Shown piece by piece: positions 6,662-25,365 of a DNA stretch of 33,875 nucleotides. The stretch spans positions 1,659 through 35,533 of the forward strand of contig PBOU01000033.1 of the NCBI GenBank assembly GCA_002724415.1. The letters run 5' to 3'. Positions within the stretch are counted from its first letter, which is position 1. Each line of letters begins with the position of its first letter. The notes beneath the pieces were generated by a model. The model was given only the letters and a program-made list of their open reading frames with translations, was not told the origin of the DNA and ran no database searches. The DNA comes from Planctomycetaceae bacterium. GTDB taxonomy: Bacteria > Planctomycetota > Planctomycetia > Planctomycetales > Planctomycetaceae. Position numbers and translations under genes: made by a program.

Positions 6662-6773
6662 GCAGCTTCATTTGAGATGAGAGGCGGGTTCGCCCTCTTT
6701 GGATTGCCGGTTGACCCCGAGATTCGGGTTTTCAATCGTCTGGGTTCTTCAATCGAAGGTGTCGATGGGTTTT

Positions 6774-7610
6774 ATGGATGCTGAAAAATTTGTATCGGCG
6801 CCTGCCGCCGACCTACCGAGCGTGAAGGGCGAGAGCGGAATCGTTGTTCGTGACGTCGTCAAGGACTTCGACCTGGGTCTGGGCAAGCGACTACGGGCCG
6901 TCGATGGAGTATCGCTTGAAATCTCTGACGGGGAGTTCGTCGCAGTCATCGGACCTTCTGGCTGCGGTAAATCCACGATCCTGAGGATGATCGCCTCGCT
7001 AGAAAAACCCACTGAGGGCGAGGTCAGCATCAACGGCGTCGAACCATCAGTTCTGGTCAAAGGACACCGACTCGGGGTTGCCTTCCAAGATCACGCGCTA
7101 CTGCCGTGGCTGAACGTCTGGGAGAACGTTGCACTTCCATTTCGGGCGGCGGGTATGCGTCCAGAGTCAGAAACGATTACTGGTCTGATTTCCTTGGTGG
7201 GTATGGCGGGATTTGAAAAGTCGCGCCCGAAACAGTTGTCGGGTGGCATGAAGCAACGCGTTGCGATAGCCCGGGCTTTGGCCCTAAACCCGGAAGTCCT
7301 CCTTCTGGATGAGCCGTTCGGAGCTCTCGACGCTGTTACCCGTAGGCAAATGAATTTCGAGTTGCAGGAGATCTGGTCTAGGGATTCGATAACCACGTTG
7401 TTGATCACACATTCCGTCGAGGAAGCGGTTCTTCTGGCAGATCGGCTGATAGTCCTCACTCAACGCCCAGGTCGCATCAGGCTGATCGAGGAAGTTCCGT
7501 TCGGCCGCCCACGTGATCGCCAATTGATGCGCACGGCGGAGTTCCACCAGTTGTGCGACAAATTGACTGCGGCACTTGATTCAGCTGAAGAGGCTCCTGA
7601 GAGTGAGTAA
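6774..7610 (+). CDS. ABC transporter ATP-binding protein, NitT/TauT (SsuB/TauB) type
   Basis: Walker [11 protein letters not shown]-loop [16 protein letters not shown], signature [15 protein letters not shown], Walker [16 protein letters not shown] extends upstream to 6699 but MDAEKF is the likely start. Confidence 0.92.
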
Positions 7611-8918: not shown

Positions 8919-9827
8919 ATGATTACCATTGACTGCCATCTGCATCTGGGAATGGTTGAAACGCAAGTCCCCATTTGGTGGATGGAAGAGCTCTACGGGA
9001 TGTACGGGGTGGAGGATTGGGACTCCACCGATGGTCAAGCCATCGTGGACCTTCTCGACGCGAATGACACCGACGCAGGGCTAGTCCAAGGCGGGGACAT
9101 TCGCCGAACGACCTTTCATCCCGACTATCCAGAAGAGTCAGCTGGCCGGATCTATATCCCAAATGATTGGACAGCGGAGCAATGCGAGCTCCACAAGGGC
9201 CGCCTCTACGGCGTGACCTGCATCGACCCGTTTCGGGATCTTCCGGGTGCGCCCATCGAACTGGAGCGGTGCGTCACAAAACTCGGGTTCCGCTCCATGA
9301 AACTGCTCCCCAGTTACCTTCACTTCGACCCAGGCGATCCCGAACTCGATCCGCTCTACCGGAAAGCTCTGGAGCTTGATGTGCCGGTGCACTTTTTCAC
9401 CGGCATGACACCGACGCGAACGGCGATGTTGAAGTATGGCGACCCCGTGCTGCTTGACGCCGTCGGTCGTCGCCATCGAGACCTAAAGGTCATCGTGTTC
9501 GTCAACTATCCATGGATCGATCAGTGCATTGCTCTTGTCGCGAAACACCCGAACTTCCATGCGGACATGTGTTATTTCGCCGGTGGGGATAGTGCCCAGC
9601 TCTACGAGGTGTTGTCGAAGTTCCGGTCCTACGGCGCCCTCGACCGGGTGATCTATGGAACCGACAATGCCGACAAGGCTCGAGCCTTCGATGGGGTTGG
9701 AAAGGTCCCTGACCTGTACTACGGAGTCAACAAGGTCGCGGAGGAACGCGGTGGCGAACCTTTCAGCCAGGACGAACTAGACGCAATACTCGGCGGGACT
9801 GCTTCCAAGTTGTTCAAGATCCCATGA
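8919..9827 (+). CDS. Amidohydrolase-2 family protein, paralog 1 (two expected metal-ligand histidines missing)
   Basis: 302 aa; starts ITIDCHLHLG (HxH); RRT...KLLPSYLHFDP; GTDNAD; homologous along its length to the next ORF. Confidence 0.85.
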   Translation: MITIDCHLHLGMVETQVPIWWMEELYGMYGVEDWDSTDGQAIVDLLDANDTDAGLVQGGDIRRTTFHPDYPEESAGRIYIPNDWTAEQCELHKGRLYGVTCIDPFRDLPGAPIELERCVTKLGFRSMKLLPSYLHFDPGDPELDPLYRKALELDVPVHFFTGMTPTRTAMLKYGDPVLLDAVGRRHRDLKVIVFVNYPWIDQCIALVAKHPNFHADMCYFAGGDSAQLYEVLSKFRSYGALDRVIYGTDNADKARAFDGVGKVPDLYYGVNKVAEERGGEPFSQDELDAILGGTASKLFKIP

Positions 9828-9843: not shown

Positions 9844-10737
9844 TTGCCAATGGTGACGATTGACTGTCACCTGCACTTAGGTGTGATTGACCAGCACACG
9901 CCAACTTGGTGGTGGTGGGAGCAGTTCGGTTTCGAACCGGTCTCTGTCGACGGTGAGACAATTGTCGAATTCCTCGATAGCGCAGGTCTAGACGTTGGGT
10001 TGGTGCAGGGGGGTGACATTCGACGAAATACATTCAACCCGGAGAGCCCCAAAGACCGGAATATGTATGTACCCAACGACTTCACCGCCAGACAGTGTGA
10101 GATGTATCCGGACCGGCTCTATGGGGTGATCGGGGTAGACCCCCTACTTGACATAGCAGAGAGCCTCAATGAGATAGATCGTTGTGTAGAGGAATATGGC
10201 TTCAGGGTCTTGAAGCTCTTGCCTACATATCACCACTACCGTCCAGACGACAGGAGACTTGATCCTTTCTTTGAGCGTTGCCTCTTGCATGACATCCCGG
10301 TTCAGATTCACCTCGGTTGGACGCGGACTATCAATACAACGATGGAGGACCAACGCCCGGTCCATCTAGACCGTATTGGACGAGATTTCCCGGACCTGAA
10401 ACTTATAGTTGCCCACCTGGGACACCCGTGGGTTGATGAAGGAATTGCTGTAGTAGCAAAGCATCCGAATTTCTATACTGAAATGTCAGGATGGGCGGCC
10501 TACGGCATGGCCCCCCATGAACCAGTCGAAGAGATTTACAAGGCATTGAAGAAACTAAAGTATTATGATTGCCTCGACAAAGTAATGTTCGGCTCAGATA
10601 ACGCCGATTGCGTTGATATGTATCCTTTGGCAAATGAAATGTCTCGTGAAAAGGACGGAGTGGAACTCTACAGCGAAGAGACTCTTAGCAAGATTATGGG
10701 TGGCACGGCTGCTGAAGTGTTCAAGATTAGGTCCTGA
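9844..10737 (+). CDS. Amidohydrolase-2 family metal-dependent hydrolase, paralog 2 (ligands intact)
   Basis: 297 aa; VTIDCHLHLG, PVQIHLGWT, LIVAHLGHPW, MFGSDNAD retain the superfamily histidine/aspartate pattern. Confidence 0.88.
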   Translation: MPMVTIDCHLHLGVIDQHTPTWWWWEQFGFEPVSVDGETIVEFLDSAGLDVGLVQGGDIRRNTFNPESPKDRNMYVPNDFTARQCEMYPDRLYGVIGVDPLLDIAESLNEIDRCVEEYGFRVLKLLPTYHHYRPDDRRLDPFFERCLLHDIPVQIHLGWTRTINTTMEDQRPVHLDRIGRDFPDLKLIVAHLGHPWVDEGIAVVAKHPNFYTEMSGWAAYGMAPHEPVEEIYKALKKLKYYDCLDKVMFGSDNADCVDMYPLANEMSREKDGVELYSEETLSKIMGGTAAEVFKIRS

Positions 10738-11768: not shown

Positions 11769-13082
11769 ATGCCCCTGCAACTTGAATACTTTGATGTAAC
11801 AGAGATCGTCCTTGGAGATCGGACGGTGCTTGAAGGTGGGACGCTCGTGGTTGACCAAGACCGCCTACGAGCACACTTGATGGAAGACGACCACTTTGAA
11901 GACGTTTCCCTCCACGTCGCCCACCCTGGCGACAGTCTCCGGATCATCAACGCGGTAGACGCCGTGGAACCACGCTGCCGTCTGGGGAACGGCGACCACG
12001 ATTTCCCAGGGTTTCTTTCCGCTCCACAAACTGTTGGAGAAGGACGGACGGCCGTATTGCGTGGTGCAGCCGTAGTAGAGGTCTCTGAGCCGGTGCCAGG
12101 GGAATCAACATACTGGCGCGAGGCATTCTTCGATATGACGGATTCCTGCAACGGATTCAGCCCTTTCTCTGACCTTGTAAACCTTGTTATTGAGGTCACG
12201 CCAGCCAAATCGATTCGGGAAGACGAACGGCCTCCCCTGAATGTCTTCGAGGGGACTCCAGAGGCAGTATCTCTGAACCGAGCAATACGCATGGCAGGGC
12301 TGAAGGCCAGCGTCTTCATGGCCTCGGCTGCAGAAGGTGTGACGCCGAATGAAGTAACTACTTTTGACTTGCCGTCAAGGCGAAATAATGATCTGCCCGG
12401 AATCGTCTACCTCTATCAGCTGGCAATTCCGTATCTGTATGGTGAAATAGTCCCTGGTGGAGGAGCTATCGGGGGCTCGGCACACCTGCCAACCTTGATT
12501 CACCCAAATGAGATTCTCGACGGTGCTCTTGTATGTGGATGGAATGCGATTGCATGCATGCGAGAACTCACATATGTAGCTCAGAACCACCCCATCATCA
12601 GCGACCTGTACGAACGAAGTGGCAAGGACCTCGAGTTCCTTGGAGTCGTTCTCTTCGCTAATGGCGATACCCGAGAAAGCAAGGACCGGTTGACTGGGCA
12701 TGCCACCACACTTGCGCGACTCCTCAACCCAGACGGTGCAGTTATCAACTACGCAGGTGGTGGGCATCCGTGTGTTGACACCATGATGATCTGTCAGAAG
12801 TTGGAAAACTCGGGCATTCCAACAACCGTCCTCTCCATGGAGATGGCTCCGAATCCGTCGGACTCTGGGTTTGTCCACTTTGTTCGAGAGGCTGATGCCA
12901 TCGTTAGCACCGGCAATTACGAGGAGAGTTACGACTTCCCGGAGGTGAAATCAGTAGTTGGAGGGGCTGCGTTGCTCAACTCGGAGTCCAGTCCTAACGG
13001 GCCGTTTTCATATCCATTGAGCGGTCTCCTCGGCTCGACGAATCAATTCGGGTTCACAAACATGACTGCAAGATCTCACTAG
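11769..13082 (+). CDS. grdE-like: Glycine/sarcosine/betaine reductase component B proprotein (GrdE-like, alpha/beta)
   Basis: 437 aa; HVAHPGDSLRIINAVDAVEPRC, FPGF, LDGALVCGWNAIACMRELTYVAQNHPII resemble GrdE/GrdG/GrdI. Confidence 0.85.
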   Translation: MPLQLEYFDVTEIVLGDRTVLEGGTLVVDQDRLRAHLMEDDHFEDVSLHVAHPGDSLRIINAVDAVEPRCRLGNGDHDFPGFLSAPQTVGEGRTAVLRGAAVVEVSEPVPGESTYWREAFFDMTDSCNGFSPFSDLVNLVIEVTPAKSIREDERPPLNVFEGTPEAVSLNRAIRMAGLKASVFMASAAEGVTPNEVTTFDLPSRRNNDLPGIVYLYQLAIPYLYGEIVPGGGAIGGSAHLPTLIHPNEILDGALVCGWNAIACMRELTYVAQNHPIISDLYERSGKDLEFLGVVLFANGDTRESKDRLTGHATTLARLLNPDGAVINYAGGGHPCVDTMMICQKLENSGIPTTVLSMEMAPNPSDSGFVHFVREADAIVSTGNYEESYDFPEVKSVVGGAALLNSESSPNGPFSYPLSGLLGSTNQFGFTNMTARSH

Positions 13083-13161
13083 GTATGAGTAGTCCCAGCA
13101 GGCCAAGGAGCGGTATGTCCCAGCCCTCAGATCTCACCATGCATGCAGGGAGGATGAGCAG

Positions 13162-14472
13162 ATGAAAGTCGTCCACTACCTAAATCAGTTCTTTGCTGGT
13201 ATCGGGGGCGAGGAGGCTGCAGATCACGCTCCCGAGTACCGAGAAGGCCCGTTGGGGCCGGGCGTTCGCCTTGACGAGTTGTTTGGTGGCTCAGCCGAAG
13301 TAGTTGGGACTCTTCTCGCAGGAGACAACTACTTCAGTATGAACCAGGCGGCTGCTATGGAAGTGATTGAGGGTCTTCTGCGTGCATCGGGCGGCGAGTT
13401 TCTTATCGCCGGTCCAGCTTTCAATGCAGGTAGATACGGCCTGGCCTGTGGCGAAGTCTGCTCCTTGGCGGTAGATCGTCTAGGAATGCCGGCATTTATA
13501 GCGATGTCAGAAAACAATCCTGCAGTTGAACTCCACAGGGCCAAGGTCCCCATTCTTCGGACATCTGAATCGACCAGTGGCATGGGACAGGCGCTAGAGG
13601 ATATGGCTGCGGGCACCCGCGCTTATCAGGGTTCCGATGGCGACTGGTCAGATGCCGCGCCACTGTTGATTTCGAGAGGCATCCGGCTTAATGAAGTTTC
13701 TCCTAGTCGCGGCTCAACAAGGGCAATAGACCTGCTGCTCTCCAAGATCGAGGGTCGGCCGTATTCGACCGAGTGGCCACTTCCTGAGTACGACATTGTC
13801 CAGCCAAGTGACCTTGAAGTCACCAATTCACAACCCTTGCTTGCACTAGTGACCGAAGGGGGCCTGGTTCCAACTGGGAACCCGGAGAGATTGAACTCAG
13901 GTCGAGCAGATCGGTGGTTCCGCTATCCGGTGCAGAGCATGGACCGGTTGCTGTCGGAAGAATTCGACATCATTCATGGGGGGATAGATACAACTCCATC
14001 TAATGAGAATCCAAATCGGATGGTTCCTCTAGACACAGCAAGAGAGCTGGAACCCAATGGTGGCTTTTCGTTGCACGAACACGTCTATTCCACCACGGGC
14101 AACCAGGGCTCGATGCCCGCAATGCGGAAGATCGGAGACGAGATCGCTGCAGAATTACACAACGAAGGTGTTCATGCAGTCATAGCAACATCCACTTGAG
14201 GAACAGGAACGCGCAGCGGGTCTGCGCTTGTGAATCAGTTCGACAAAGCTGGAATCCCATCGGTGCTGGTGACCGCAATACCTTCCTTGGCTGAGTCGCT
14301 TGGGGTCAATCGGATTGTGGAAGGCGGAGCAGTCACTCACCCAATGGGGGCGCCGGACGTCCCATCTAATGAAGAGCAGGCGTATCGAGCCCAGTTGTTT
14401 GAACTGGCACTCAGTACTTTGAAGACATCAGTATCTGGTCCGACTGTATTCACGCTAGATCAAACAGCCTGA
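13162..14472 (+). CDS. grdB-like: Glycine/sarcosine/betaine reductase selenoprotein B (GrdB/F/H-like), in-frame UGA (14197-14199) read as selenocysteine
   Basis: ORF 13162-14199 ends VIATST-UGA and the same frame continues GTGTRSGSALVNQFDKAGIPSVLVTAIPSLAESLGVNRIVEGGAVTHPMG to 14472; matches GrdB organisation VILTSTU-G-T...GIP...VGANRIV...PHPLG. Total 437 codons. Confidence 0.93.
14211..14227 (+). promoter_or_regulatory. Candidate bacterial SECIS hairpin for the grdB-like UGA
   Basis: 11 nt after UGA: GCGCAG-CGGGT-CTGCGC, 6-bp perfect stem with GGGTCT at the apex, same spacing and 17-nt length as the E. coli fdhF minimal SECIS upper stem-loop. Confidence 0.7.
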
Positions 14473-14499
14473 CTATTAGTAAGGTTCTGGGAATAATTG

Positions 14500-15966
14500 A
14501 TGAATAGCATCGGCAACCGACCCTGCATCAAGTCGGTCAACCTCTGTTTGGCCCACGTTCCTAATCTGGTTCGGTATGGGTCAAAACCACAACGCGAAAT
14601 CGATGCACACCCAGAAACCCTTGACGAGATTCTCCGAGCAGCACGATCTTTCGAAGAAGCTGCGGCCTACCCTCCACACCAGGCCTTTATCGGAAATCTC
14701 ATGCCGGAAGATCTGGAGCAGATCGCAAGACCCTGGCATTCAAAGCCATTAGTCAATGCTTCGCCGGTTGGCCCCGATGGGCTTATTGTCGAGGAGGGAC
14801 TATTGCTCTGCCTTACGGCAGCGACAGACCCCTTCAACCTTCTCCGCCTCGATCCGCAGTACATAGGGCGGCACCGGGAGGCGCTCTCCACTGCTGAATG
14901 GTTCACCAAAGATGACTTCGATGCTCTAGGCGATGGAACACCCCAAGAAACGTTGAAGGAACTCGTCAAGTCTCGGGGGGCACTTCCGCTGCTTGAGAAA
15001 GATGAACTAATTGGCTGCGTAGAAAATGCCCATAGCGAGGACTCGAGCCTTCGTAGAGAGATCGTTCTGGAGAATTTGATGGCAAAGTCATCCGCAGTGC
15101 TCGCGCTGCGGATGCTCAGCGCCGTCGAAGAGCGTGGTGCGGATATCGACTATGTAATGGGATGCGGTGAGGAGGCCGTAGGAGACCGATACCAGCGTGG
15201 CGGAGGAAATCTTGCGAAGGCTGTTGCTGAACACGGCTGGTGCCCGAATGCCACAGGTTCTGACATCAAGGCCTTCTGCTGTGCGCCAAACCACGCCATC
15301 GTTATGGGTGCAGCACTAGTCGCCAGTGGCTTGTATAAGAACGTGGCTGTAATCGGTGGGGGATCGCTTGCGAAACTGGGAATGAAGTTTCAAGGGCACC
15401 TGCGCAATGGAATGCCCATTCTCGAAGATGTCTTAGCTTCGGTCGCAGTTCTCATAGGAGAGGACGATGGGTTCAGTCCAGTCATTGATCTTGAGTCGGT
15501 CGGTCGCCACACGGTTGCGGCCGGCTCGTCACCCCAGGCCATTGCCGAGGCCTTGATTCTCGAACCCCTAACTAGCAAGGGACTGGGCATCTTGGATGTC
15601 GATCGTTACGCAACCGAACTCCACGATCCTGACATCACCGAACCTCAGGGCAGCGGGAACACTCCGCTAGCCAACTATCGAGTGCTGGCCAGTCTTGCTG
15701 TCCAGCGAAAAGAGATCAGTAGAGAGGAAATCCCCGATTTCGTTGGTCGTTTCGGAATGCCAGGGTTCTCTCCAACACAGGGACATATCGCATCGGCCGT
15801 TCCCTTTCTTGGCCACGCGTGCAGGAGCCTGACCAGTGGTGAGGCGGATCACACGATGTTCTATGCCAAGGGAAGCCTGTTTCTGGGACGGATGACCGAG
15901 ATGTCAGATGGCATGTCATTTATCTTGAGTCGCAATACAAACACTAAGAAAAGTCAGAAGGGTTGA
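14500..15966 (+). CDS. grdC-like: Glycine/sarcosine/betaine reductase component C beta subunit (GrdC-like)
   Basis: About 488 aa thiolase-fold-like protein; CGEEAVGDRYQRGGGNLAKAVAE, FCCAPNHAIVMGAALVASG, GHIASAVPFLGHA. Confidence 0.88.
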   Translation: MNSIGNRPCIKSVNLCLAHVPNLVRYGSKPQREIDAHPETLDEILRAARSFEEAAAYPPHQAFIGNLMPEDLEQIARPWHSKPLVNASPVGPDGLIVEEGLLLCLTAATDPFNLLRLDPQYIGRHREALSTAEWFTKDDFDALGDGTPQETLKELVKSRGALPLLEKDELIGCVENAHSEDSSLRREIVLENLMAKSSAVLALRMLSAVEERGADIDYVMGCGEEAVGDRYQRGGGNLAKAVAEHGWCPNATGSDIKAFCCAPNHAIVMGAALVASGLYKNVAVIGGGSLAKLGMKFQGHLRNGMPILEDVLASVAVLIGEDDGFSPVIDLESVGRHTVAAGSSPQAIAEALILEPLTSKGLGILDVDRYATELHDPDITEPQGSGNTPLANYRVLASLAVQRKEISREEIPDFVGRFGMPGFSPTQGHIASAVPFLGHACRSLTSGEADHTMFYAKGSLFLGRMTEMSDGMSFILSRNTNTKKSQKG

Positions 15967-15967
15967 C

Positions 15968-16426
15968 ATGACAGAGTTGAGTGGAAAGTGCGTTATCGCG
16001 ATTGGAGAACGCGATGGCATCCCAGGTCCAGCTATTTCAGAAGTAGTCAGGTCTGCGGGAGCCCGAGAAGTGGTGTCCTTCACTCAGTGCTTCGTTTGAA
16101 CGTCAGCCGGAGCTGTTGATCTGGATGATCAAACGAAGATTCTCGAGACGGTGCGAGCGAACGGTGATAACGAGGTCGTCGTCGTCTTGGGTACACCTGA
16201 CCGTGATAGCACGGAAATCGTCACCCAAACTGTGACAACTGGAGATCCCAGTTATGCGGGCCCTCTGTCAGGAATCCCTCTCGGCCTGCCAGTCATCCAT
16301 GTTCTCGATGAGCGGGTAGCAGCACAGTCAGATCCGGCGACCTATTCGTCTGAGATCGGGCTGATGCTGGACGCGCTGGAAAGAGATGCACTGGTTGCTG
16401 CCACACGAACTTCAGAATCCGGGTAA
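15968..16426 (+). CDS. grdA: Glycine reductase complex selenoprotein A (GrdA), in-frame UGA (16097-16099) = Sec44
   Basis: Frame read through UGA: MTELSGKCVIAIGERDGIPGPAISEVVRSAGAREVVSFTQCFV-U-TSAGAVDLDDQTKILETVRANG...GDPSYAGPLSGIPLGLPVIHVLDE...SSEIGLMLD. CFVUTxAGAxDL is the GrdA active-site signature. The ORF track only recovers 16151-16426. Confidence 0.95.
16107..16124 (+). promoter_or_regulatory. Weak candidate SECIS hairpin after grdA UGA
   Basis: CCGGA-GCTGTTGA-TCTGG, 5-bp stem including one G-U pair, starting 7 nt after UGA. Confidence 0.3.
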
Positions 16427-16617
16427 GCGTTAGTAATGGGTCCGGTAACCCGGGATCTGCGATCAGTTAGAGCGAGAAATGGGTGCCTTGAGATCACACG
16501 CCAGTCGAGAGATGACCCGGCCAGAAGTGATTCAGGCGAAGCCTCGGGAGCATTTCGACATCTAGGACAATCAGGTTGGTTGCGCCCAGCCAACCCAACT
16601 CGTCCAGGGGGACAGAG

Positions 16618-17640
16618 ATGAATCAAGAAACCGTTTGGCTCGATAACGAGCATCCCGCACTGCGAAAGTGCTGGCATCCAGTCGCCAGGTCAGAGGATGC
16701 AGTAGAGGGAGTCCCATTACAGGTCGAGCTCCTAGGGGAGTTCTGGTGCGTCCTGCGGCTTGATGGGCAACTAGCTGCTTTCCCAGATGTTTGCCCACAT
16801 CGATTGGCCACTCTTAGCGAGGGGTCTGTTGTTGATGGGACTCTTCAGTGCGGATATCACGGTTACCGCTATGCAATGGACGGGAAGTGCGTGAAGATCC
16901 CAGCGCAGTCTCCGTCTCTTCCAATTCCGCCTCGGGCGAATTGTCAGATGGCCGCTGGCATTCAAGACCACTTGGGTTTGGTTTGGCTGGCTCCAGATGA
17001 ACCACTTGTGGGGCTCCCAGAGGTACCAGAACATGATGATCCGAATTTTGTGAATTGCCCACTTGAGCCTTGGGAGTGGAATGCCAGTGCGGCCCAGATG
17101 GCTGACAACTTCCTGGACCTCGGCCACTTCCCCTTTTTGCACCTCGCAACGTTCGGGGTGACAGACGATGAGCAAGTACCCGACTACGACATGGAGCGGT
17201 CAGGTCTTTCCGTGCGCGTCGAGTATTCCCACGCGACCAAAGCTCTAGCGGATTCGATGGATAACGCCGATGATTTCAGGCAAGTCGAACGGCACGACGT
17301 GTTCGTATTTACACCGCCGCATCATGTCTACATCTACATCGACTATGCCGATGAGAACGCCGTGCTCGCAATCAGCTTTGCTCATCAACCGGTGAATGCC
17401 TCAACGACTCGTCTCTTCTGCACCGATTATCGGAACGATATTGAAGACACGGCTGAAGCGCGTCTAGAGGCAACAAAGTTCCAGTTGGCAGTGGGTGCCG
17501 AGGACAAAGCACTGCTTGAGCGATCGCATTTCAAGGCGGTGCCACTTGACCAGCGTTACGAAGTACACACGAAGGCAGATCGTGTCACTTTGGAAATGCG
17601 CAGGATCTTGACGGACCTTGTCGCGTTAGCTAGCGAGTGA
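16618..17640 (+). CDS. Rieske [2Fe-2S] non-heme iron oxygenase, alpha subunit (VanA/NdmA-B-like)
   Basis: Rieske motif CPHR...CGYHGYRY and mononuclear iron motif DNFLDLGHFPFLH. Confidence 0.9.
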   Translation: MNQETVWLDNEHPALRKCWHPVARSEDAVEGVPLQVELLGEFWCVLRLDGQLAAFPDVCPHRLATLSEGSVVDGTLQCGYHGYRYAMDGKCVKIPAQSPSLPIPPRANCQMAAGIQDHLGLVWLAPDEPLVGLPEVPEHDDPNFVNCPLEPWEWNASAAQMADNFLDLGHFPFLHLATFGVTDDEQVPDYDMERSGLSVRVEYSHATKALADSMDNADDFRQVERHDVFVFTPPHHVYIYIDYADENAVLAISFAHQPVNASTTRLFCTDYRNDIEDTAEARLEATKFQLAVGAEDKALLERSHFKAVPLDQRYEVHTKADRVTLEMRRILTDLVALASE

Positions 17641-18701
17641 GCCATCTCGTGGTCGAACCGGCAAGCCCAGAGCATGTCCGTTCGATTCCTAAAGTCGAAC
17701 TGCACGTTCATGTTGAAGGAGCTGCGCGGCCTAGCACCCTTACGAATCTCGCGAGACAGAACGGAATTGAATTGCCCGTGCAGGACCTCGCATCCCTGTA
17801 CGCCTACGAGGGACTGGAAGACTTCATTGGCGCCTACGACATAGTGTGCCGCTGTCTCGTTAGCGCCGCGGATTACGAGCGGGTTACCCACGAGTCGTTG
17901 GAACTCGCCCACCTTGCAGGCGTCCAGTACAGAGAGATGTTCTTTTCGCCAACCTTCGCGCTACGAAGAGGGATCCCTTTCAAGACTGTCTGGCAGGGAC
18001 TTGCGGCAGGTGTAAGTGAGGCACGCAAAGACTTCGGAATTGAATGCAAGCTCATCTTAGATATTGACAAGCCCTCAGGTCCGGGACCGGCCCGTGAACT
18101 GATCGACCTGGCGCTTGGCTGCGATCGTGAGGTTCTTGTCGGGATTGGTGGAGATGCGGGCGAGGACGGAGTTGACCTTGTTGCCTTTGTCGAACCTTTC
18201 GAGTTCGCCCGGCAGCAGGGTTTTAGGACGACCATGCACCTCAGTGAAGAAGGACCGGCCTCGGACATAGCCGTCGGTGTGCGACAAATAGGAGTCGACC
18301 GTGTTGATCATGGCTTCAACTTGTTGAAGGACATGGACCTGACTCGAGAGGTGGTTGAACGCCAGGTGCCGGTGACTGTTTGCCCAACCTCGAATGTTGA
18401 GATCGGTCTCCTGGATAGCTTGTCGGATCACCCGGCACCAGCCATGCGACAGCACGGAGTGTTGGTCTCGATCAACTCCGACAACGCAGAGATGTTTCGA
18501 ATTGATTTGGCCGACGAGTTTCTTCGGGTCCAAGAGGCCTTCGGCTATGGACTAGCGGATCTCGAGGACCTTTCGATAGCAGCAATTCAGAGCAGCTGGC
18601 TCGATGACGCGTCGAAGACAGAGATGAAGAGGCAATTCACCACCCGATTCCAGGAGTTACGTTCGGAGATGGGAAGAACCGAAAGGGCCTTTGAGTTGTG
18701 A
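17637..18701 (+). CDS. Adenosine/adenine deaminase family protein
   Basis: 354 aa, GTG start overlapping upstream stop; PKVELHVHVEGA, MHLSEEGP, VDHGFNL, VTVCPTSNVEIG, LVSINSDNAEMF. Confidence 0.88.
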   Translation: MSHLVVEPASPEHVRSIPKVELHVHVEGAARPSTLTNLARQNGIELPVQDLASLYAYEGLEDFIGAYDIVCRCLVSAADYERVTHESLELAHLAGVQYREMFFSPTFALRRGIPFKTVWQGLAAGVSEARKDFGIECKLILDIDKPSGPGPARELIDLALGCDREVLVGIGGDAGEDGVDLVAFVEPFEFARQQGFRTTMHLSEEGPASDIAVGVRQIGVDRVDHGFNLLKDMDLTREVVERQVPVTVCPTSNVEIGLLDSLSDHPAPAMRQHGVLVSINSDNAEMFRIDLADEFLRVQEAFGYGLADLEDLSIAAIQSSWLDDASKTEMKRQFTTRFQELRSEMGRTERAFEL

Positions 18702-18748
18702 ATGGAGAGTTGAGGAGAGCATGAAGAGGTGGCAGCAATCTGTTTCCC

Positions 18749-19672
18749 ATGCTTTGCCCGGAAATCAGCATGCCTGAAAGACTTTGCAACGACCCTGTTC
18801 TGGAGAATCTGTGGCACCCCGTTGCGGCCATTCCTGACGTGCGAGAACGCGGTCCGATCACGACCCAACTCCTAGGCGAGAAGCTTGTGATCTCAGGACA
18901 GGCAGGTGAAGAAATCGTGGTCTCAGAAGTGTCAGATGTGGGTATCGATCGGCGACTGCCAGTCCGAGAGTCCTTCGGGTTCGTATGGACGAGTTTGGGT
19001 TCGCCGCCAGAAACCCTCTTCGACATTCCTGAGTTTCACGAACCAGACCGTTGGTACGAGAACAGTGGAAGCTTCGGGGTACATACCTCCGCTGGTCGAG
19101 TGGTTGAAAACTTTCTCGATCTCGCACATTTTCCTTTTGTTCATGATGGATACCTGGGAGAACAGCCTTATACGGAAGTAAAGGAGTATTCAGTAGGAAT
19201 TGACAACGGAGAGATCTGGGCAACCGGCTGTGAGTTCTACCAGCCAATCGCTGCGGTCTCCGCGACAGATGGTCAGGTGACCAAGTACTCCTATCGGTTG
19301 GCGCACCCTTTCTGTCCGCTCCTCTATAAGACGAGTCCTCTGGATCCCGAAAGGTTCGATGTCATCGGGATCTTCGTCCAGCCGATGACGGAAGTGCAGA
19401 CTTGTGCACATCAGTTTCTCTGCCTTCTGGATGAAGCCAATGACGATGCGACCATCAAGAGGTTCCAGGCGATCATCTTCAGCCAGGACAAACCGATCCT
19501 CGAGAACCAAGTCCCCAAACGATTACCGCTAGGACCCCGAGCAGAAACTCCGATCAGGGCCGACAAGACGTCAATTCAGTATCGGCGTTGGCTCACTGAG
19601 CTCGGAGTTTCGTATGGGGTGATCCGAGATGAGGCCCAACAAGTTGCCGCTACCAAGGAAGAAGTTCGCTAA
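18749..19672 (+). CDS. Rieske-oxygenase-type catalytic subunit lacking the Rieske domain (NdmC-like architecture); start possibly 18770
   Basis: WHPVAAIPDV N-terminus, no CxH...CxxH, but VVENFLDLAHFPFVHDGY mononuclear iron motif present. Confidence 0.87.
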   Translation: MLCPEISMPERLCNDPVLENLWHPVAAIPDVRERGPITTQLLGEKLVISGQAGEEIVVSEVSDVGIDRRLPVRESFGFVWTSLGSPPETLFDIPEFHEPDRWYENSGSFGVHTSAGRVVENFLDLAHFPFVHDGYLGEQPYTEVKEYSVGIDNGEIWATGCEFYQPIAAVSATDGQVTKYSYRLAHPFCPLLYKTSPLDPERFDVIGIFVQPMTEVQTCAHQFLCLLDEANDDATIKRFQAIIFSQDKPILENQVPKRLPLGPRAETPIRADKTSIQYRRWLTELGVSYGVIRDEAQQVAATKEEVR

Positions 19673-21417
19673 TGGGGCAGGGGTCTCGTCAGTGGCACCC
19701 GGTTGCGGCGATCGCTGACCTCCGACACAGACACGTGTTCCAAACAGAACTGTTTGGCCATGAGCTGGTCGTCTGGCAAGCCGATGACAGTTTCGTAAAT
19801 GTGTGGGAAAACCGCTGCCTGCACCGAGGTGCGCGACTATCGGTTGGGATAAATGATGGAGCTGAACTGATTTGCGCTTATCACGGTTGGCATTACGCAA
19901 ATCGAACGGCAGGGTGCACCTATATTCCTGCTCATCCAGCTGATGGTCCGTCTCGCACTGTTTGTAATGGCGTTTATCCGTCATTCGTCCAACATGGGCT
20001 CGTATGGGCCGCACTTGAACCACCAGATGAGATACCAGCCTTCGACTGGCTGGATGACGGTGAGCCGCTTGTTCTGCGCAGCCTCCCTATCGACGCTTCG
20101 CTCGAAGAGGTTCAGCGCCATCTGGCAGGCCATGAATTCAGCGTTCATCCCGACCAGGATGGACAGAATCCGCTCTTTGGATTGGTTCCCAGTGACCAGA
20201 ATTCATTTTGTTACCAAAATTCGGCTTCAGCCGACCCGTTCGCAGCACGGTTCCTGCTGCAACCGTTCAGTTCCAATAAGACAATCATTCATGGTCTAGT
20301 AGCCCCCGCCCCTGAAGAAGAAGATCGGCTAGCAAGTCTCCTTCACTACAACACTCAGTTAACAAGGTTCCGGGAAGAGGTCGAATCCAGCATCTCCGTC
20401 AGTGCAGACCCGTGGTTGGAGGACATCGACCGACCAACCCATGGACGGCGTGGGAACACGTTCTCGACCGCTGACGAGATAGAAGTCGAAGTGGTCAAGA
20501 AGTGGAAGGCCGCAACAGACATCGCCGGTTTTGAGTTACGTCCAGCCGGAACGGACCTTCCGACATTCCAGCCTGGAGCCCATATCGACCTTCACCTGGC
20601 CAATGGCCTAGTTCGGCAGTATTCGCTAATCAACGGGCCAGAAGAACAGGGCTGTTATCAGATCGGCGTAAAACTGGAACAGGACTCGCGCGGAGGGTCC
20701 AGGTTTCTCCATGAAGAGGTCCAAGAGGGCGACAGGATCGCAATTACGGGTCCGCACAACAATTTCGGCCTCCGCAGGGATACTCCTCGGACCGTGTTGC
20801 TTGCCGGCGGCATTGGGGTGACGCCGCTCCTTGCAATGGCACAAGCGCTAGATAGAACCGAACTCGGCTTCACGTTGCACTACTTCGCGCAATCCACTGA
20901 GCACCTGGCGTTCCAAGATCGACTTGGAGAATTGGGAACCCGACTACGAACGCATATCGGATTAGGACCCGAGGAAACTATGCAGACTGTAGAGAAGGCC
21001 CTCGGACCCTACGATCACCTCAGTCAGGTCTATTCCTGCGGGCCGCCCCAAATGATCAACGCGATTCGCGACACTGCGTCAAGCCTGGGGTGGCCACCTG
21101 AAGCTATTCACTACGAATACTTCAAGAATGAGAAGACAATCGATCAGCTTTCAGCCTTCGAGGTCCACCTAGCCCGATCTGGGATCAGCCTCTCTGTCGA
21201 CAGCGGAAAGACAATCCTTGAGGTCCTTCGTGCCAATGGAGTTCCCCTTCCCTCATCATGCGAACAAGGAGCTTGTGGAACTTGCGAAGTTCCAGTCCTA
21301 GACGGAGTGCCACACCACCAAGACGTCTACCTCAATGACTCTGAGCATGAGGCAGGAAAGAGAATAATGACCTGCGTTTCTCGAGCTCACTCGGAACAGC
21401 TTATTTTAGATATCTGA
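19672..21417 (+). CDS. Rieske domain fused to FNR-type reductase and plant-type [2Fe-2S] ferredoxin (NdmD-like architecture)
   Basis: CLHRGARLSVG...CAYHGWHY; GAHIDLHLANGLVRQYSL; LLAGGIGVTPLLAMA; CSCEQGACGTCEVPVLDG-type ferredoxin loop (SSCEQGACGTC...MTC). Start ATG overlaps TAA of upstream gene. Confidence 0.92.
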   Translation: MGQGSRQWHPVAAIADLRHRHVFQTELFGHELVVWQADDSFVNVWENRCLHRGARLSVGINDGAELICAYHGWHYANRTAGCTYIPAHPADGPSRTVCNGVYPSFVQHGLVWAALEPPDEIPAFDWLDDGEPLVLRSLPIDASLEEVQRHLAGHEFSVHPDQDGQNPLFGLVPSDQNSFCYQNSASADPFAARFLLQPFSSNKTIIHGLVAPAPEEEDRLASLLHYNTQLTRFREEVESSISVSADPWLEDIDRPTHGRRGNTFSTADEIEVEVVKKWKAATDIAGFELRPAGTDLPTFQPGAHIDLHLANGLVRQYSLINGPEEQGCYQIGVKLEQDSRGGSRFLHEEVQEGDRIAITGPHNNFGLRRDTPRTVLLAGGIGVTPLLAMAQALDRTELGFTLHYFAQSTEHLAFQDRLGELGTRLRTHIGLGPEETMQTVEKALGPYDHLSQVYSCGPPQMINAIRDTASSLGWPPEAIHYEYFKNEKTIDQLSAFEVHLARSGISLSVDSGKTILEVLRANGVPLPSSCEQGACGTCEVPVLDGVPHHQDVYLNDSEHEAGKRIMTCVSRAHSEQLILDI

Positions 21418-21427
21418 GGCCCATCTC

Positions 21428-22066
21428 GTGATTACTCTCTATGACTATGAGTTATCGGTGAACTGCTACAAAGTTCGTTTGTTGTTGAATTTTCTTTCAG
21501 TTCCTTACAATCTGCATTCGATTGACTTTTTTCCGGGTTGGGAGCATAAATCTGAGTGGTTTAAGGAGATCAACCCCCTAGGCCATATCCCAGTAGTTGA
21601 TGATGATGGGTATATCCTCCGAGATTCGAACGCCATCCTCATTTACCTTGCTACAAAATATGACGACGAACTCAAGTGGTATCCAACCCGGCAAGCAGAA
21701 CTTCTAGGCGAAGTCTCCCAGTGGATGATGTTCTCAGAAGGGACGACAAACACTGCCTCAGCCGCCAGGCTGCACGACAGCCTGGGCTATGAATTTGATA
21801 TTGATGCGTGTCGCTCAGGGGCCCATCGTCTTTTCAGGGTGCTCGACGAACACCTCTGGTTCCGAGAACAACAAAATCTTCCTTGGCTCTGCTCGGCTGA
21901 GTTTCCAACACTTGCAGACCTGGTGATCTTTCCCGATGTGATTCTCTCAGAAGAGGGGGGAATCAATCGGGTTTCCTATCCAGCTATTCGCCGATGGACG
22001 GACCGATTTCGCAGATTACCCAACTTCTCCCTAATGGCGGGAGTGCTTCCAGCAGGGGCGATCTAG
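21428..22066 (+). CDS. Glutathione S-transferase family protein (NdmE-like position)
   Basis: 212 aa; ITLYDYELSVNCYKVRLLLNFLSVPYNLHSIDFFPGWEHKSEWFKEINPLGHIPVVDDDGYILRDSNAILIYLATKY is a canonical GST N-terminal domain. Confidence 0.9.
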   Translation: MITLYDYELSVNCYKVRLLLNFLSVPYNLHSIDFFPGWEHKSEWFKEINPLGHIPVVDDDGYILRDSNAILIYLATKYDDELKWYPTRQAELLGEVSQWMMFSEGTTNTASAARLHDSLGYEFDIDACRSGAHRLFRVLDEHLWFREQQNLPWLCSAEFPTLADLVIFPDVILSEEGGINRVSYPAIRRWTDRFRRLPNFSLMAGVLPAGAI

Positions 22067-22117: not shown

Positions 22118-23500
22118 TCATCTGGACCGCCCCGGGTTTATCTCTATTGGCAGGTCTAGGCGTTTGATCAAGTCCGTAGCACGACCTTGCGCCTCTTCCA
22201 TGACGCTTTGTTCATCAACCTTTGTACAAGAGCCCTGTTCGAAAATGACCTCACCACCGACGATGGTCATTTCTACGTCTGTGCTTCGGGCCGCGAAGGC
22301 GACAGCTGGGATTGGCGCCGGTCTGGGTGTCATATGGGGGCCGTCAAGTGAGACGACTGTGATGTCTGCAAGAAGTCCTGGGCTTAGAACACCGGCTTCT
22401 AAACCTAGAAATTCAGCTCCACCCCGAGTTGCAAGAGTTAGAGCCTGTTGGGGTCCTGACTCAGTTGGGTCCATGCTTTGAAGGCGTTGGATGATCACTG
22501 CCAATTTGATCTGCTCGAACATGTCGTTGCGAAATCCCGCCACAGCGCCGTCGTAGCCGAGCCCAATCGAGGCGCCGGCCTCGACAAGGTCGGTCAGTCT
22601 CATAGTGCCAAGGCCGAAGATTCCATGGGAGACCGGGCAGTACGCGATTCCTGTTTTACGCTCACCGGCTAAGGCAACTTCCTCGTCGTCGAGAAAAATC
22701 ATGTGTGCTATGTGGGCATCAGGTCCTAGGAGACCGGCTTTCTCCAACCAGATGACCGGTCTTGTCCCGTGTTCAGCGAGGTAGACGTCGGCGTCGGTTT
22801 TGTATTGGGAGCAGTGGGTGTGCCACCCAACGTTCTTTGAGCGGGCGAGTTCAACTGCCGAAATGACGAAGTCCTGATCGTTGTAGATGATGTCGCCAGG
22901 GGCAGGCCAGATCTCCACCTTGCTACCGGCAGGACGTGCGTCGATCGCTTCAGCCGCTCTCACCAACTGCTCTTCTTCTGGGTACGGCTGTTCGCGGCCC
23001 ATTCCGTGCCCTATGGCGCCGCGCAACCCCACTGATTCCACTGCATCGGCAACGGCTATTGTCGTCTCGAGGTCGGTTCCTGCATAGTGGTGGTCTAGGA
23101 CCGCAGAAGTTCCGCTTCTCGCCTGTTCTACCGCTGCCATCGTCACTGCAGCTCTCACTTCGTCCCTTGTCATGCTTGCAGCCAGCGGCATCATGAACTC
23201 CGGAAGCCAAACTCTGAAGTCGACACCCTCTCCTAGGCCACGTGCGGCATTCTGAAATAGGTGGTCGTGGGCTGAGACGAAACTAGGTATCACCGCTCTA
23301 GCGCTGCAGTCGACGACCCTTTTCGCTGACAGATGCTTAAGGTCACTCTCTAGGCCGACGGCAGTAATCCGGTCACCCTTGATTGCGACAGTGCCTGGTT
23401 CGAAGATCTGGGCGCCGGTGTCCATCGTGATCACTGCGCCACCTGTCAACAGGAGGTCGCATGACCGGCTTTCAGCAGTGGAGTCGCGGTCCTCGTCCAT
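22118..23500 (-). CDS. Amidohydrolase family protein (TrzN/AtzA/S-adenosylhomocysteine-deaminase-like)
   Basis: 460 aa; VIPSFVSAHDHLFQNAARGLGEG, VGWHTHCSQYKTD, AHMIFLDDEE, YCPVSHG, GASIGLGYDG. Confidence 0.87.
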   Translation of the reverse strand: MDEDRDSTAESRSCDLLLTGGAVITMDTGAQIFEPGTVAIKGDRITAVGLESDLKHLSAKRVVDCSARAVIPSFVSAHDHLFQNAARGLGEGVDFRVWLPEFMMPLAASMTRDEVRAAVTMAAVEQARSGTSAVLDHHYAGTDLETTIAVADAVESVGLRGAIGHGMGREQPYPEEEQLVRAAEAIDARPAGSKVEIWPAPGDIIYNDQDFVISAVELARSKNVGWHTHCSQYKTDADVYLAEHGTRPVIWLEKAGLLGPDAHIAHMIFLDDEEVALAGERKTGIAYCPVSHGIFGLGTMRLTDLVEAGASIGLGYDGAVAGFRNDMFEQIKLAVIIQRLQSMDPTESGPQQALTLATRGGAEFLGLEAGVLSPGLLADITVVSLDGPHMTPRPAPIPAVAFAARSTDVEMTIVGGEVIFEQGSCTKVDEQSVMEEAQGRATDLIKRLDLPIEINPGRSR

Positions 23501-23678: not shown

Positions 23679-25304
23679 TTGGCCGTGTCAATGGGATCTG
23701 CCTCTAGTTCTCCTGCCAAGGAATCTCCCGGCTCTGGAGATGCAGTGTCGATGACCGGGATCCGAAAGTCATTTGGATCGACCGTGGCCCTAGAGGGAGC
23801 AGAATTTCACCTGCATCATGGAGAGATCCACGCCCTCCTAGGCGAGAACGGAGCTGGCAAGTCCACTCTGATGAACATTCTCTATGGCCTGGAGCAGAGA
23901 GATGGCGGCGAAATACTGGTAGATGGAGTACCAGTAAATTTTGGCACTCCTCAAGACGCTGTTGCCAAAGGTATTGGAATGGTACACCAGCATTTCAAGC
24001 TCGTACCCCGCCTATCAGTAATTGAGAACGTTCTCCTCAGTGATCGGAGATCGCGAACGTTTCGGCTTCCAGACCTTGATGTAGCTGCAAAAGAACTAGA
24101 AGAACTTGCTGATCGTTATGGCCTGCCGATTTGTGCCACTGATCAAGTCTCAGAGTTGTCTGTGGGAGAGCAACAACGCGTCGAAATACTCCGTTCGCTC
24201 TATCTGGGTGCGGAGACGCTGATACTTGATGAGCCCACTGCTTCCTTGACCCCACTTGAAGTAACCCAACTGCTGGCGAAACTCCGAGACCTTGCCAATA
24301 CCGGAACGTCGATAGTCATTATTACGCACCATCTCGACGAGGTGATGGAATCGGCAGATCGGGTCACGGTCCTGCGGTCTGGGTCGAATGTGCGAACTAC
24401 GAAAGCAGCTGATACAAGCCAAGCCGAGCTGGCGAGGATGATGGTCGGAAGAGACGTACGAATCCTTACGCAGCCGAATGCAATGCGAACCCAGCCATCA
24501 GAGCGACCGTCTTACGAGCAAAGACGTCCGGTATTGCAACTCGCCGGCGTTGGAGCCGGTGCTCATGATCCTGTGAACGGCAGTGATGACGGGCTCAAGC
24601 GCGGGTTGCTTGACATCTCCTTGGCCGTCCATCCAGGCGAGATTGTCGCTATCGCCGGTGTCGAAGGGAACGGACAAACCGAACTCGAAGACGTCCTTAG
24701 TGGATTTCTCAAAGTCGACGAAGGGGAGTTCTGGATTGATGGCAACGATTTGGCAAGTTGTCAGCCATCAGACCTGTTAGATATCGGTGTCGGATACATA
24801 CCTTCTGATCGCTACCGGCGTGGCGTGATAGGAGCACTGTCAGTAGCTGTAAATATCTCCTATGACAGGGTTAGTGAACCGCCAATAGGAACCCAACTAT
24901 GGGTTAATTCTCGAGAGATCATGAAGCAAGGCAGCCAAGCGGTTGAAGAGTTCTCGATTGTTGTCCAAGATGCCGCAGATCTCGTAGGCACGCTTTCTGG
25001 GGGCAACGCACAGCGGGTAGTCATCGCTCGCGCGCTTGCAAAGGACCTTCGGCTCCTCGTGGCAGCGCAACCAACTCGTGGGCTTGATGTTGGAGCGATC
25101 GAGTTCATATGGGACCTCCTTGATCAACAGAGGTCACAGGGACTCGCTACCCTTTTGATTACCACCGATTTAGACGAAGTTATGGCTCTCGCTGATCGCG
25201 TCTACGTCATGTATCGGGGACGGTTAACGGAAGTGCCCAATGACCGTGAACTAATTGGCATGGCTATGGGGGGCTCGAGTGAGGAAGTTGGAGACCCACG
25301 TTGA
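23679..25304 (+). CDS. Duplicated ABC ATPase of a BMP-type nucleoside transporter (YufO/NupA-like)
   Basis: 541 aa; two nucleotide-binding domains (GENGAGKST, LSVGEQQRVEILRSL, LILDEPTASLTP; GVEGNGQTEL, LSGGNAQRVVIARAL, QPTRGLDVGA). Confidence 0.92.
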   Translation: MAVSMGSASSSPAKESPGSGDAVSMTGIRKSFGSTVALEGAEFHLHHGEIHALLGENGAGKSTLMNILYGLEQRDGGEILVDGVPVNFGTPQDAVAKGIGMVHQHFKLVPRLSVIENVLLSDRRSRTFRLPDLDVAAKELEELADRYGLPICATDQVSELSVGEQQRVEILRSLYLGAETLILDEPTASLTPLEVTQLLAKLRDLANTGTSIVIITHHLDEVMESADRVTVLRSGSNVRTTKAADTSQAELARMMVGRDVRILTQPNAMRTQPSERPSYEQRRPVLQLAGVGAGAHDPVNGSDDGLKRGLLDISLAVHPGEIVAIAGVEGNGQTELEDVLSGFLKVDEGEFWIDGNDLASCQPSDLLDIGVGYIPSDRYRRGVIGALSVAVNISYDRVSEPPIGTQLWVNSREIMKQGSQAVEEFSIVVQDAADLVGTLSGGNAQRVVIARALAKDLRLLVAAQPTRGLDVGAIEFIWDLLDQQRSQGLATLLITTDLDEVMALADRVYVMYRGRLTEVPNDRELIGMAMGGSSEEVGDPR

Positions 25305-25365
25305 TGCCTGCTGGTCAGTCCATGAGCTGGTCCGGTGAGGAATCTCAGGTCGTGCATTCGTATCC

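What the first reader, a model, noticed from the sequence alone, without database searches (positions are those of the whole stretch)
11769..22066. Grd selenoenzyme system co-located with O2-dependent Rieske oxygenases
Glycine/sarcosine/betaine reductase is classically an anaerobic amino-acid-fermenting (Clostridia-type) system that yields acetyl phosphate with oxygen-sensitive Sec chemistry. Here GrdE-B-C-A-like genes sit on one strand, at short intergenic distances, directly upstream of two Rieske oxygenase systems that need O2. Inference: this is a repurposed Grd complex doing reductive C-N (or other C-X) cleavage on an intermediate made by oxidative N-dealkylation, possibly in an aerobic host.
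Basis: partly seen in the sequence, partly recalled or inferred. Interest (0 to 1): 0.85.

Follow-up and report, generated by a model that had tools for sequence, protein, structure and literature searches.

The report
Altered Grd selenoenzyme beside purine demethylases
A selenium-dependent enzyme complex best known from oxygen-shunning fermenting bacteria turns up here, in an altered form also found in marine actinobacteria that carry genes for breathing oxygen, next to a set of oxygen-using purine demethylase genes; the altered complex probably cuts a carbon-nitrogen (or similar) bond in an unknown substrate, and the two gene sets look like separate modules that share an island rather than one fixed pathway.

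Summary
Genes for GrdE, GrdB (in-frame TGA at 14197), GrdC and GrdA (TGA at 16097) occupy 11769-16426. A Rieske block (16618-22066) follows on the same strand after a 191-base gap. It resembles the methylxanthine N-demethylase set: an NdmA/SxtT-like oxygenase, a deaminase, NdmC, NdmD and the GST-family NdmE.

The Grd genes belong to an actinobacterial clade; 23 of 345 Acidimicrobiia-class genomes have full-length GrdB (11 genes of the window type, 13 of others). Window-type GrdE lacks the pyruvoyl-forming cysteine, GrdB lacks the CxxC after selenocysteine, and GrdD is missing. All 26 actinobacterial GrdB sequences fail the published glycine and sarcosine motifs. Sixteen of 17 Grd-bearing relatives carry a haem-copper oxidase, so an oxygen-respiring host is likely.

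The Grd-Rieske pairing was not seen elsewhere. In relatives, this Grd sits with BKACE, amidohydrolases, an NMT1-type transporter and sometimes choline-sulfatase; Ndm blocks sit with a BMP-type transporter in other genomes. Here one fused binding protein joins both transporter types. That Rieske products feed Grd is possible but not supported by comparison. The contig is probably foreign to the bin that holds it.

The parts
4438..6525 (+). fused substrate-binding lipoprotein: BMP/PnrA-type half plus NMT1-type half
   Evidence: Pfam Bmp 63-309 and NMT1 389-598 in one 695-aa frame; residues 375-693 are about 70% identical to stand-alone NMT1 proteins in Acidimicrobiia Grd loci; those have lipobox, linker and NMT1 only
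6699..7610 (+). ABC transporter ATPase (conserved with type-1 Grd)
   Evidence: Pfam ABC_tran; 63-68% identity in Grd loci L050, L055, L057, L063, L198, L199
7576..8814 (+). GcvT-like folate-binding protein (closest: C-terminal part of TMAO demethylase)
   Evidence: Pfam GCV_T; NCBIfam TmaoDeMthMsil 209 bits, below cutoff; PDB 9q59; also near GrdEB in relatives
8919..9827 (+). Amidohydro_2 family protein Ami1
   Evidence: conserved beside GrdEB and, in pairs, beside GrdCA in relatives
9844..10737 (+). Amidohydro_2 family protein Ami2
   Evidence: 57% in L195
10756..11730 (+). BKACE (beta-keto acid cleavage enzyme)
   Evidence: Pfam BKACE 274 bits; 70-72% identity directly upstream of GrdE in type-1 loci
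11769..13082 (+). GrdE-like protein B subunit without the pyruvoyl-precursor Cys (GWNAIAC instead of GNCVSAC)
13162..14472 (+). GrdB-like selenoprotein, Sec at codon 14197-14199, motif STUGTGTRSG
14211..14227 (+). hairpin GCGCAG-CGGGT-CTGCGC 11 bases after the UGA, candidate bacterial SECIS element
   Evidence: present in window and 7 Acidimicrobiia (GCGTAG-CGGGT-CTACGC); one compensatory pair, not significant on 8 sequences
14497..15966 (+). GrdC (protein C beta subunit)
   Evidence: NCBIfam NF040746 585 bits, cutoff 450
15968..16426 (+). GrdA selenoprotein, Sec at codon 16097-16099, CFVU motif
   Evidence: NCBIfam NF040748 160 bits, cutoff 130
16618..17640 (+). Rieske oxygenase, SxtT/NdmA-like
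   Evidence: Pfam Rieske + VanA_C; PDB SxtT, NdmA; Rieske and iron motifs intact; 71% partial match beside an Ndm block in L248
17637..18701 (+). adenosine-deaminase-family hydrolase
   Evidence: NCBIfam aden_deam 258 bits, cutoff 217
18749..19672 (+). NdmC-like oxygenase subunit without Rieske centre
   Evidence: VanA_C only; PDB SxtT/NdmA C-terminal domain; iron motif ENFLDLAHFPFVH, no CxH/CxxH
19672..21417 (+). NdmD-like reductase: Rieske, FAD/NAD and plant-type ferredoxin domains in one chain
   Evidence: PDB matches include the NdmD ferredoxin domain 6icm_D and phthalate dioxygenase reductase
21428..22066 (+). NdmE-like GST-family protein
   Evidence: Pfam GST_N; 53-66% identical proteins end NdmC-NdmD-GST blocks in rhizobial plasmids and Acidimicrobiia
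22118..23500 (-). TRZ/ATZ-type amidohydrolase (AmiH), nearest to 8-oxoguanine or 5'-deoxyadenosine deaminases
   Evidence: 47-50% identical copies adjoin GrdEB and GrdCA in relatives
23679..27383 (+). ATPase and two permeases of a BMP-type ABC transporter
   Evidence: same genes beside Ndm blocks in L162-L164, L246, L248, L249
27416..28855 (-). choline-sulfatase family sulfatase
   Evidence: TIGR03417 523 bits, cutoff 433; also beside type-1 Grd in L195 (571 bits) and L141 (558 bits)
29178..30752 (+). fused double permease of the NMT1-type transporter
   Evidence: Pfam BPD_transp_1 x2; 55-59% identical in type-1 Grd loci
30799..32142 (-). guanine-deaminase-like amidohydrolase
   Evidence: TIGR02967 339 bits, cutoff 375; 48% to guaD after the Ndm block in Mesorhizobium

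Best explanation
The island joins two separable catabolic modules. Module 1 (with the transporter, amidohydrolase, BKACE and GcvT genes) is an actinobacterial, GrdD-less variant of the Sec-dependent protein A/B/C reductase. The Sec of GrdB attacks the alpha carbon of a substituted acetate whose leaving group needs no Schiff base (a quaternary or tertiary amine, or another group). The carboxymethyl group passes to the Sec of GrdA, and GrdC turns it into an acetyl thioester, released to CoA or another acceptor rather than as acetyl phosphate. Module 2 is a methylxanthine-type N-demethylase set (NdmA/SxtT-like, NdmC, NdmD, NdmE-like) with a deaminase and a BMP-type importer, which removes N-methyl groups from purine-like compounds with O2 and NAD(P)H. 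The host is probably an O2-respiring marine actinobacterium. Shown: the genes, motifs, Sec codons, clade, missing GrdD and module contexts. Inferred: substrates, acetyl acceptor and operation under oxygen.
For: Grd identity and Sec codons, kept as TGA in all relatives read; SelB above cutoff in 8 of 8 actinobacterial genomes searched. GrdB clade of window plus 8 actinobacterial sequences, SH-aLRT 99. Pyruvoyl Cys lost in GrdE as in betaine GrdI, kept in glycine and sarcosine types. CxxC lost in GrdB; the same two losses are reported for fluoroacetate reductase FarB/FarE (PMC10838667). No GrdD in actinobacterial loci or the window against 56 of 72 other loci; whole-genome hits only weak partial ones of about 30% identity. 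Haem-copper oxidase in 16 of 17 Grd-bearing relatives. Published glycine and sarcosine motifs failed by 26 of 26 actinobacterial GrdB, while 58 of 72 others pass the glycine one. Conserved Grd neighbours: BKACE, AmiH, Ami1/2, NMT1 transporter, GcvT, in some choline-sulfatase. Ndm block and its transporter in Grd-free contexts.
Against: The substrate is unknown for both modules and the acetyl-to-CoA step is inference. In the window's own host neither the Sec machinery nor the oxidase can be assigned, because the contig probably does not belong to the bin. No tRNA-Sec was confirmed: bin hits were below cutoff and ARAGORN called the best ones ordinary tRNAs; none lies next to SelB in the relatives. 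Oxidase genes do not show that Grd works in oxygen. The fused binding protein hints that the modules do share something here.
Confidence: 0.6

Rival explanations
1. Coupled pathway: Rieske N-dealkylation makes the compound whose C-N bond Grd then cuts, so that the whole 8.9-22 kb block is one pathway.
For: Same strand, short gaps, similar composition (tetranucleotide correlation 0.87 between the blocks, 0.70-0.71 to the contig tail); one binding protein fuses the transporter domains of both modules; purine-type deaminases occur in both contexts. From textbook knowledge, purine ring breakdown can yield glycine-type acids.
Against: No Ndm block within about 10 kb of the type-1 Grd loci read; four genomes with close NdmC, none with full-length GrdB; eight Grd-bearing genomes have no NdmD orthologue, only Rieske or reductase domains at 26-42% identity.
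Confidence: 0.15
2. Betaine-type route (a narrower form of the best explanation): Grd acts on glycine betaine or a relative derived from choline sulfate, choline or carnitine, releasing a methylated amine whose methyl groups go to folate through the GcvT-like protein.
For: Choline-sulfatase family gene in the window and beside type-1 Grd in L195 and L141; GrdE lacks the pyruvoyl Cys as GrdI does; GcvT-like protein nearest to TMAO demethylase; BKACE could follow carnitine oxidation, and carnitine genes were reported enriched in a sponge symbiont guild that includes Acidimicrobiia (PMC5649159).
Against: GrdB is nearer the sarcosine than the betaine model and far below every equivalog cutoff; betaine GrdH keeps CxxC; no choline or betaine transporter family was seen; it leaves the conserved AmiH/Ami1/Ami2 unexplained; the 3-hydroxyacyl-CoA-type dehydrogenase at 3192-4157 is far below the carnitine dehydrogenase cutoffs.
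Confidence: 0.3
3. Anaerobic electron sink: the host respires oxygen but uses Grd only when its animal host or particle turns anoxic, as clostridia do.
For: Grd and Sec enzymes correlate with anaerobic life in earlier surveys (PMC1794560); facultative bacteria with Grd exist (Enterococcus, Photobacterium records).
Against: No GrdD, so no acetyl phosphate by the known route and no direct ATP gain; the neighbours are uptake and catabolic genes, not fermentation genes.
Confidence: 0.2
4. Assembly artefact: Grd and Rieske blocks come from different organisms and were joined by the assembler.
For: The contig is a misfit in its bin, and GC changes from about 0.55 to 0.61 near 31.5 kb.
Against: Composition is continuous across 16.4-16.6 kb; the fused binding protein carries both module signatures in one frame; AmiH, sulfatase and PermT, typical of Grd loci, lie beyond the Rieske block.
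Confidence: 0.05

Closest known systems
Clostridial glycine reductase (GrdA, GrdB/GrdE, GrdC/GrdD)
   Same: Same subunits A, B, E and C; Sec in GrdA (CxxU) and GrdB; above cutoff for GrdA and GrdC models
   Different: No GrdD, no pyruvoyl-precursor Cys in GrdE, no CxxC after Sec, fails the published glycine motif; lineage with terminal oxidases
Fluoroacetate reductase FarB/FarE (Synergistota)
   Same: Reported to lack both the CxxC of GrdB and the processing cysteines of GrdE (PMC10838667)
   Different: FarE model 140 bits against a cutoff of 675; different neighbours; C-F cleavage not indicated
Betaine reductase GrdH/GrdI
   Same: GrdI also lacks the pyruvoyl Cys
   Different: GrdH keeps CxxC; 29-35% identity; GrdD follows GrdC in the Enterococcus cluster
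Sarcosine reductase GrdF/GrdG
   Same: Best-scoring NCBIfam models for both window B subunits
   Different: GrdG keeps GNC, GrdF keeps CxxC; scores far below cutoffs; motif failed
Caffeine/methylxanthine N-demethylase NdmABCDE (Pseudomonas)
   Same: NdmC without Rieske centre, NdmD with an extra Rieske domain, GST-family NdmE, SxtT/NdmA-like oxygenase, one gene block
   Different: Compared by sequence with NdmA, NdmB and a fragment of NdmD only; no substrate evidence; an ADA-family gene is included

Membership tests
Glycine/sarcosine/betaine reductase complex (Grd) | GrdA with CxxU selenocysteine | tested here: met
   CFVU at 16097; NF040748 160 bits, cutoff 130
Glycine/sarcosine/betaine reductase complex (Grd) | GrdB-type selenoprotein with UxxCxxC | tested here: not met
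   Sec present but UGTGTRSG: both Cys replaced
Glycine/sarcosine/betaine reductase complex (Grd) | GrdC with its acyltransferase partner GrdD | tested here: not met
   GrdC met; GrdD absent from window and from actinobacterial loci; only weak partial hits in the genomes
Glycine reductase (substrate type) | GrdE proprotein with pyruvoyl-forming Cys (GNC) | tested here: not met
   GWN at that place in window and type-1 relatives
Glycine reductase (substrate type) | published GrdB glycine motif | tested here: not met
   0 of 26 actinobacterial, 58 of 72 others
Sarcosine reductase | GrdF motif and NCBIfam cutoff | tested here: not met
   motif absent; 390 bits, cutoff 800
Betaine reductase | NCBIfam GrdH cutoff | tested here: not met
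   340 bits, cutoff 775
Fluoroacetate reductase | FarE equivalog cutoff | tested here: not met
   140 bits, cutoff 675
Selenoprotein | in-frame UGA conserved in relatives | tested here: met
Selenoprotein | SECIS hairpin downstream of UGA | tested here: inconclusive
   GrdB hairpin present; covariation not significant; no Rfam match
Selenoprotein | SelA, SelB and tRNA-Sec in the same organism | tested here: inconclusive
   SelB in 8 of 8 relatives; SelA and SelB in the bin but on a contig unlike the window's; tRNA-Sec not confirmed
NdmCDE N7-demethylase | oxygenase subunit without Rieske, reductase with Rieske, GST-family partner, adjacent | tested here: met
   pathway described in PMC8055839
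NdmCDE N7-demethylase | demethylates 7-methylxanthine | not testable with these tools
   needs enzyme assay

The most novel reading that the evidence does not exclude
A class of Sec-dependent reductase in O2-respiring actinobacteria that cuts C-N or C-X bonds without a pyruvoyl cofactor and without acetyl phosphate, handing acetyl to CoA, with a new substrate range; in this island it is wired by a fused importer to an O2-dependent purine N-demethylase, so that one cell uses Sec-reductive and oxygenative cleavage on one nutrient pool.
Probability: 0.3. Interest if true: 0.78.

Novelty: new variant of a known kind. Interest (0 to 1): 0.62.

Why it matters
Grd is the textbook reductive half of amino-acid fermentation in strict anaerobes, tied to ATP through acetyl phosphate. 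A selenocysteine-retaining, GrdD-less form across a lineage that carries terminal oxidases would separate Grd chemistry from fermentation, raise the question of how the Sec is protected from oxygen, and point to an unrecognised nutrient in sponges, corals and similar hosts. A motif-filtered survey of Grd (PMC9751293) would not have counted these proteins.

Tried and rejected
Rfam scans of the window and Grd region gave no RNA family. tRNA-Sec search of the bin gave only sub-threshold hits; ARAGORN read the best ones as ordinary tRNAs (Gly, Ser, Leu). Assigning SelA/SelB of the bin to the window's host was rejected because of composition. Carnitine dehydrogenase for 3192-4157 was rejected on score. 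SECIS covariation was tested and is not significant. No PDB relative of GrdB was found, so no structure-based inference was made. BKACE substrate could not be read from PDB alignments. Literature searches for Grd or selenoproteins in Acidimicrobiia or sponge symbionts found no report of this system, within the open-licence library only. GcvT, BKACE and amidohydrolases give no single substrate that I could defend.
Full report
What is there. Frame analysis and family scans show GrdE (11769-13082), GrdB (13162-14472), GrdC (14497-15966) and GrdA (15968-16426) on the + strand, with in-frame TGA at 14197 and 16097 exactly where selenocysteine lies in Grd proteins. GrdA and GrdC pass NCBIfam cutoffs; GrdB passes the broad subfamily model TIGR01918 but none of the glycine, sarcosine or betaine models. 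After 191 bases comes a five-gene block, 16618-22066, with overlapping or closely spaced genes.

The Rieske block. The gene at 18749 has the oxygenase C-terminal domain and the iron motif but no Rieske centre; the next gene carries the Rieske centre fused to FAD/NAD and plant-type ferredoxin domains; a GST-family gene follows. This fits NdmC-NdmD-NdmE of caffeine degraders, where NdmE is a GST homologue of structural role (PMC8055839); that NdmC lacks and NdmD carries the Rieske centre is from my own knowledge of that system. PDB matches are SxtT and NdmA for both oxygenases, and the NdmD ferredoxin domain is among those for the reductase. The same NdmC-NdmD-GST order, about 50-60% identical, lies on rhizobial plasmids beside a BMP-type ABC transporter, with guanine deaminase or a xanthine-dehydrogenase-type gene in some, and in four Acidimicrobiia-class genomes, one of which also has a 71% partial match to the window's Rieske oxygenase. 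The substrate is inferred to be an N-methylated purine or similar compound; it was not tested.

Relatives of the Grd block. A GrdB scan of GTDB genomes returned, besides many Bacillota, Acidimicrobiia MAGs and an Actinomycetota MAG. In seven of them, as far as the contigs reach, a block of ABC ATPase, NMT1 binding protein, double permease, amidohydrolase, BKACE (70-72% identical), GrdE (55-58%), GrdB (45-47%), Ami1 and often GcvT is conserved. GrdC and GrdA lie elsewhere in those genomes, beside a second AmiH and two Ami1 copies. Choline-sulfatase family genes adjoin type-1 Grd in L141 and L195 and occur in the window. In a draw of 345 genomes of the class, 23 have full-length GrdB; 11 genes are of the window type (type 1) and 13 of two other kinds, found mostly in E-B-C-A operons.

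What differs from textbook Grd. At the GrdE processing site clostridial proteins and G116 have GNC; sarcosine GrdG also has it; betaine GrdI does not; the window and type-1 relatives have GWN. After the Sec of GrdB, clostridial, sarcosine and betaine proteins have UGTCTRCG; the window has UGTGTRSG. The cysteine-derived pyruvoyl group of GrdE was shown in C. difficile at residue 242 (PMC9908766). Loss of both features is reported for fluoroacetate reductase (PMC10838667). GrdD was found in 56 of 72 non-actinobacterial loci and in none of the actinobacterial ones; whole-genome search gave only short, about 30% hits, plausibly PlsX-like proteins (inference). None of 26 actinobacterial GrdB sequences matches the published glycine or sarcosine motifs.

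Phylogeny. A quick maximum-likelihood tree of 81 GrdB proteins puts the window with the eight actinobacterial sequences (SH-aLRT 99); branches are long, the window's most of all, so finer placement is unsure. GrdA and GrdC place the window with L052 (98 and 99); the GrdA and GrdC of the seven Acidimicrobiia were not in those trees.

Oxygen and selenium. Haem-copper oxidase genes are in 17 of 18 genomes tested: 16 of 17 Grd-bearing relatives (G296, a MAG, is negative) and the window's own bin. SelB is above cutoff in all eight actinobacterial genomes searched. tRNA-Sec was not confirmed anywhere. A hairpin follows the GrdB UGA in window and relatives; only one pair covaries and shuffles reach that often.

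Host of the window. The assembly has 94% completeness and 5.5% contamination. Tetranucleotide usage of the window contig correlates 0.27-0.41 with other stretches of the bin, most of which correlate above 0.7 with each other. Of 293 other genomes drawn from the phylum only two have a GrdA match, one of them marginal, and none of the listed same-family genomes has it. I conclude that the contig is probably a misbinned actinobacterial piece or an acquired island; the bin's SelA and SelB therefore say nothing firm about this host. Within the contig, 1-31.5 kb has GC near 0.55 and the rest near 0.61, which suggests an island.

Are the two blocks one pathway? The comparison says they are separable: no Ndm block near the type-1 Grd loci read, and no full-length GrdB in the four genomes with close NdmC. 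In the window, however, they share strand and composition, genes typical of the Grd context (AmiH, sulfatase, PermT) lie beyond the Rieske block, and one lipoprotein carries both the BMP half that goes with Ndm transporters and the NMT1 half that goes with Grd transporters. This makes a shared nutrient pool plausible here. It does not show that one enzyme feeds the other.

Mechanism, with status. Shown: genes, Sec codons, motif losses, missing GrdD, neighbours. From known Grd chemistry: GrdB Sec takes the carboxymethyl group, GrdA Sec accepts it, GrdC forms the acetyl thioester. Inferred: with no pyruvoyl the leaving group needs no Schiff base; with no GrdD the acetyl goes to CoA or another acceptor; the substrate is a host-derived substituted acetate. 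The substrate is not known.

Verdict. I rate it a new variant of a known kind, interest 0.62.

Noticed in passing
window 4438-6525: Two unrelated types of solute-binding protein (BMP and NMT1) fused in one lipoprotein; each half matches a different transporter in the window.
   Followed up: partly
G000 contig C151 (window plus flanks): Contig composition does not fit the bin, and GC rises from 0.55 to 0.61 at about 31.5 kb; probable misbinning or island.
   Followed up: partly
L196, L200-L211: Two further kinds of Acidimicrobiia Grd operon (E-B-C-A, no GrdD) with GrdE motifs such as GVYVYACYKN or GQLGHPSLKN and GrdB UGTGTRCG or UGTSTRCG.
   Followed up: partly
L104, L118, L125: GrdB-like selenoproteins in groundwater Deltaproteobacteria and Chloroflexi MAGs with UGTANRCG or UGTGTRCG and, in L104 and L118, no GrdE processing Cys (GDYHIAA, ADYHIAA); another non-canonical group.
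   Followed up: no
L048 9120-13662 (G116): Genome of the bin's phylum with canonical-motif GrdE/GrdB divergent from GrdC/GrdA and no GrdD hit, suggesting that GrdD absence is not tied to motif loss.
   Followed up: partly
L162-L164: Rhizobial plasmids carry NdmC-NdmD-GST blocks with BMP transporters and purine genes, annotated only as generic Rieske proteins.
   Followed up: partly
window 30799-32142: Guanine-deaminase-like gene just under the model cutoff; its relative follows the Ndm block in Mesorhizobium.
   Followed up: no
L195 and L196 (G567): One near-complete genome (3.0-Mb contig) carries both a type-1 Grd cluster with choline-sulfatase and a separate E-B-C-A operon; a good reference for experiments.
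   Followed up: partly
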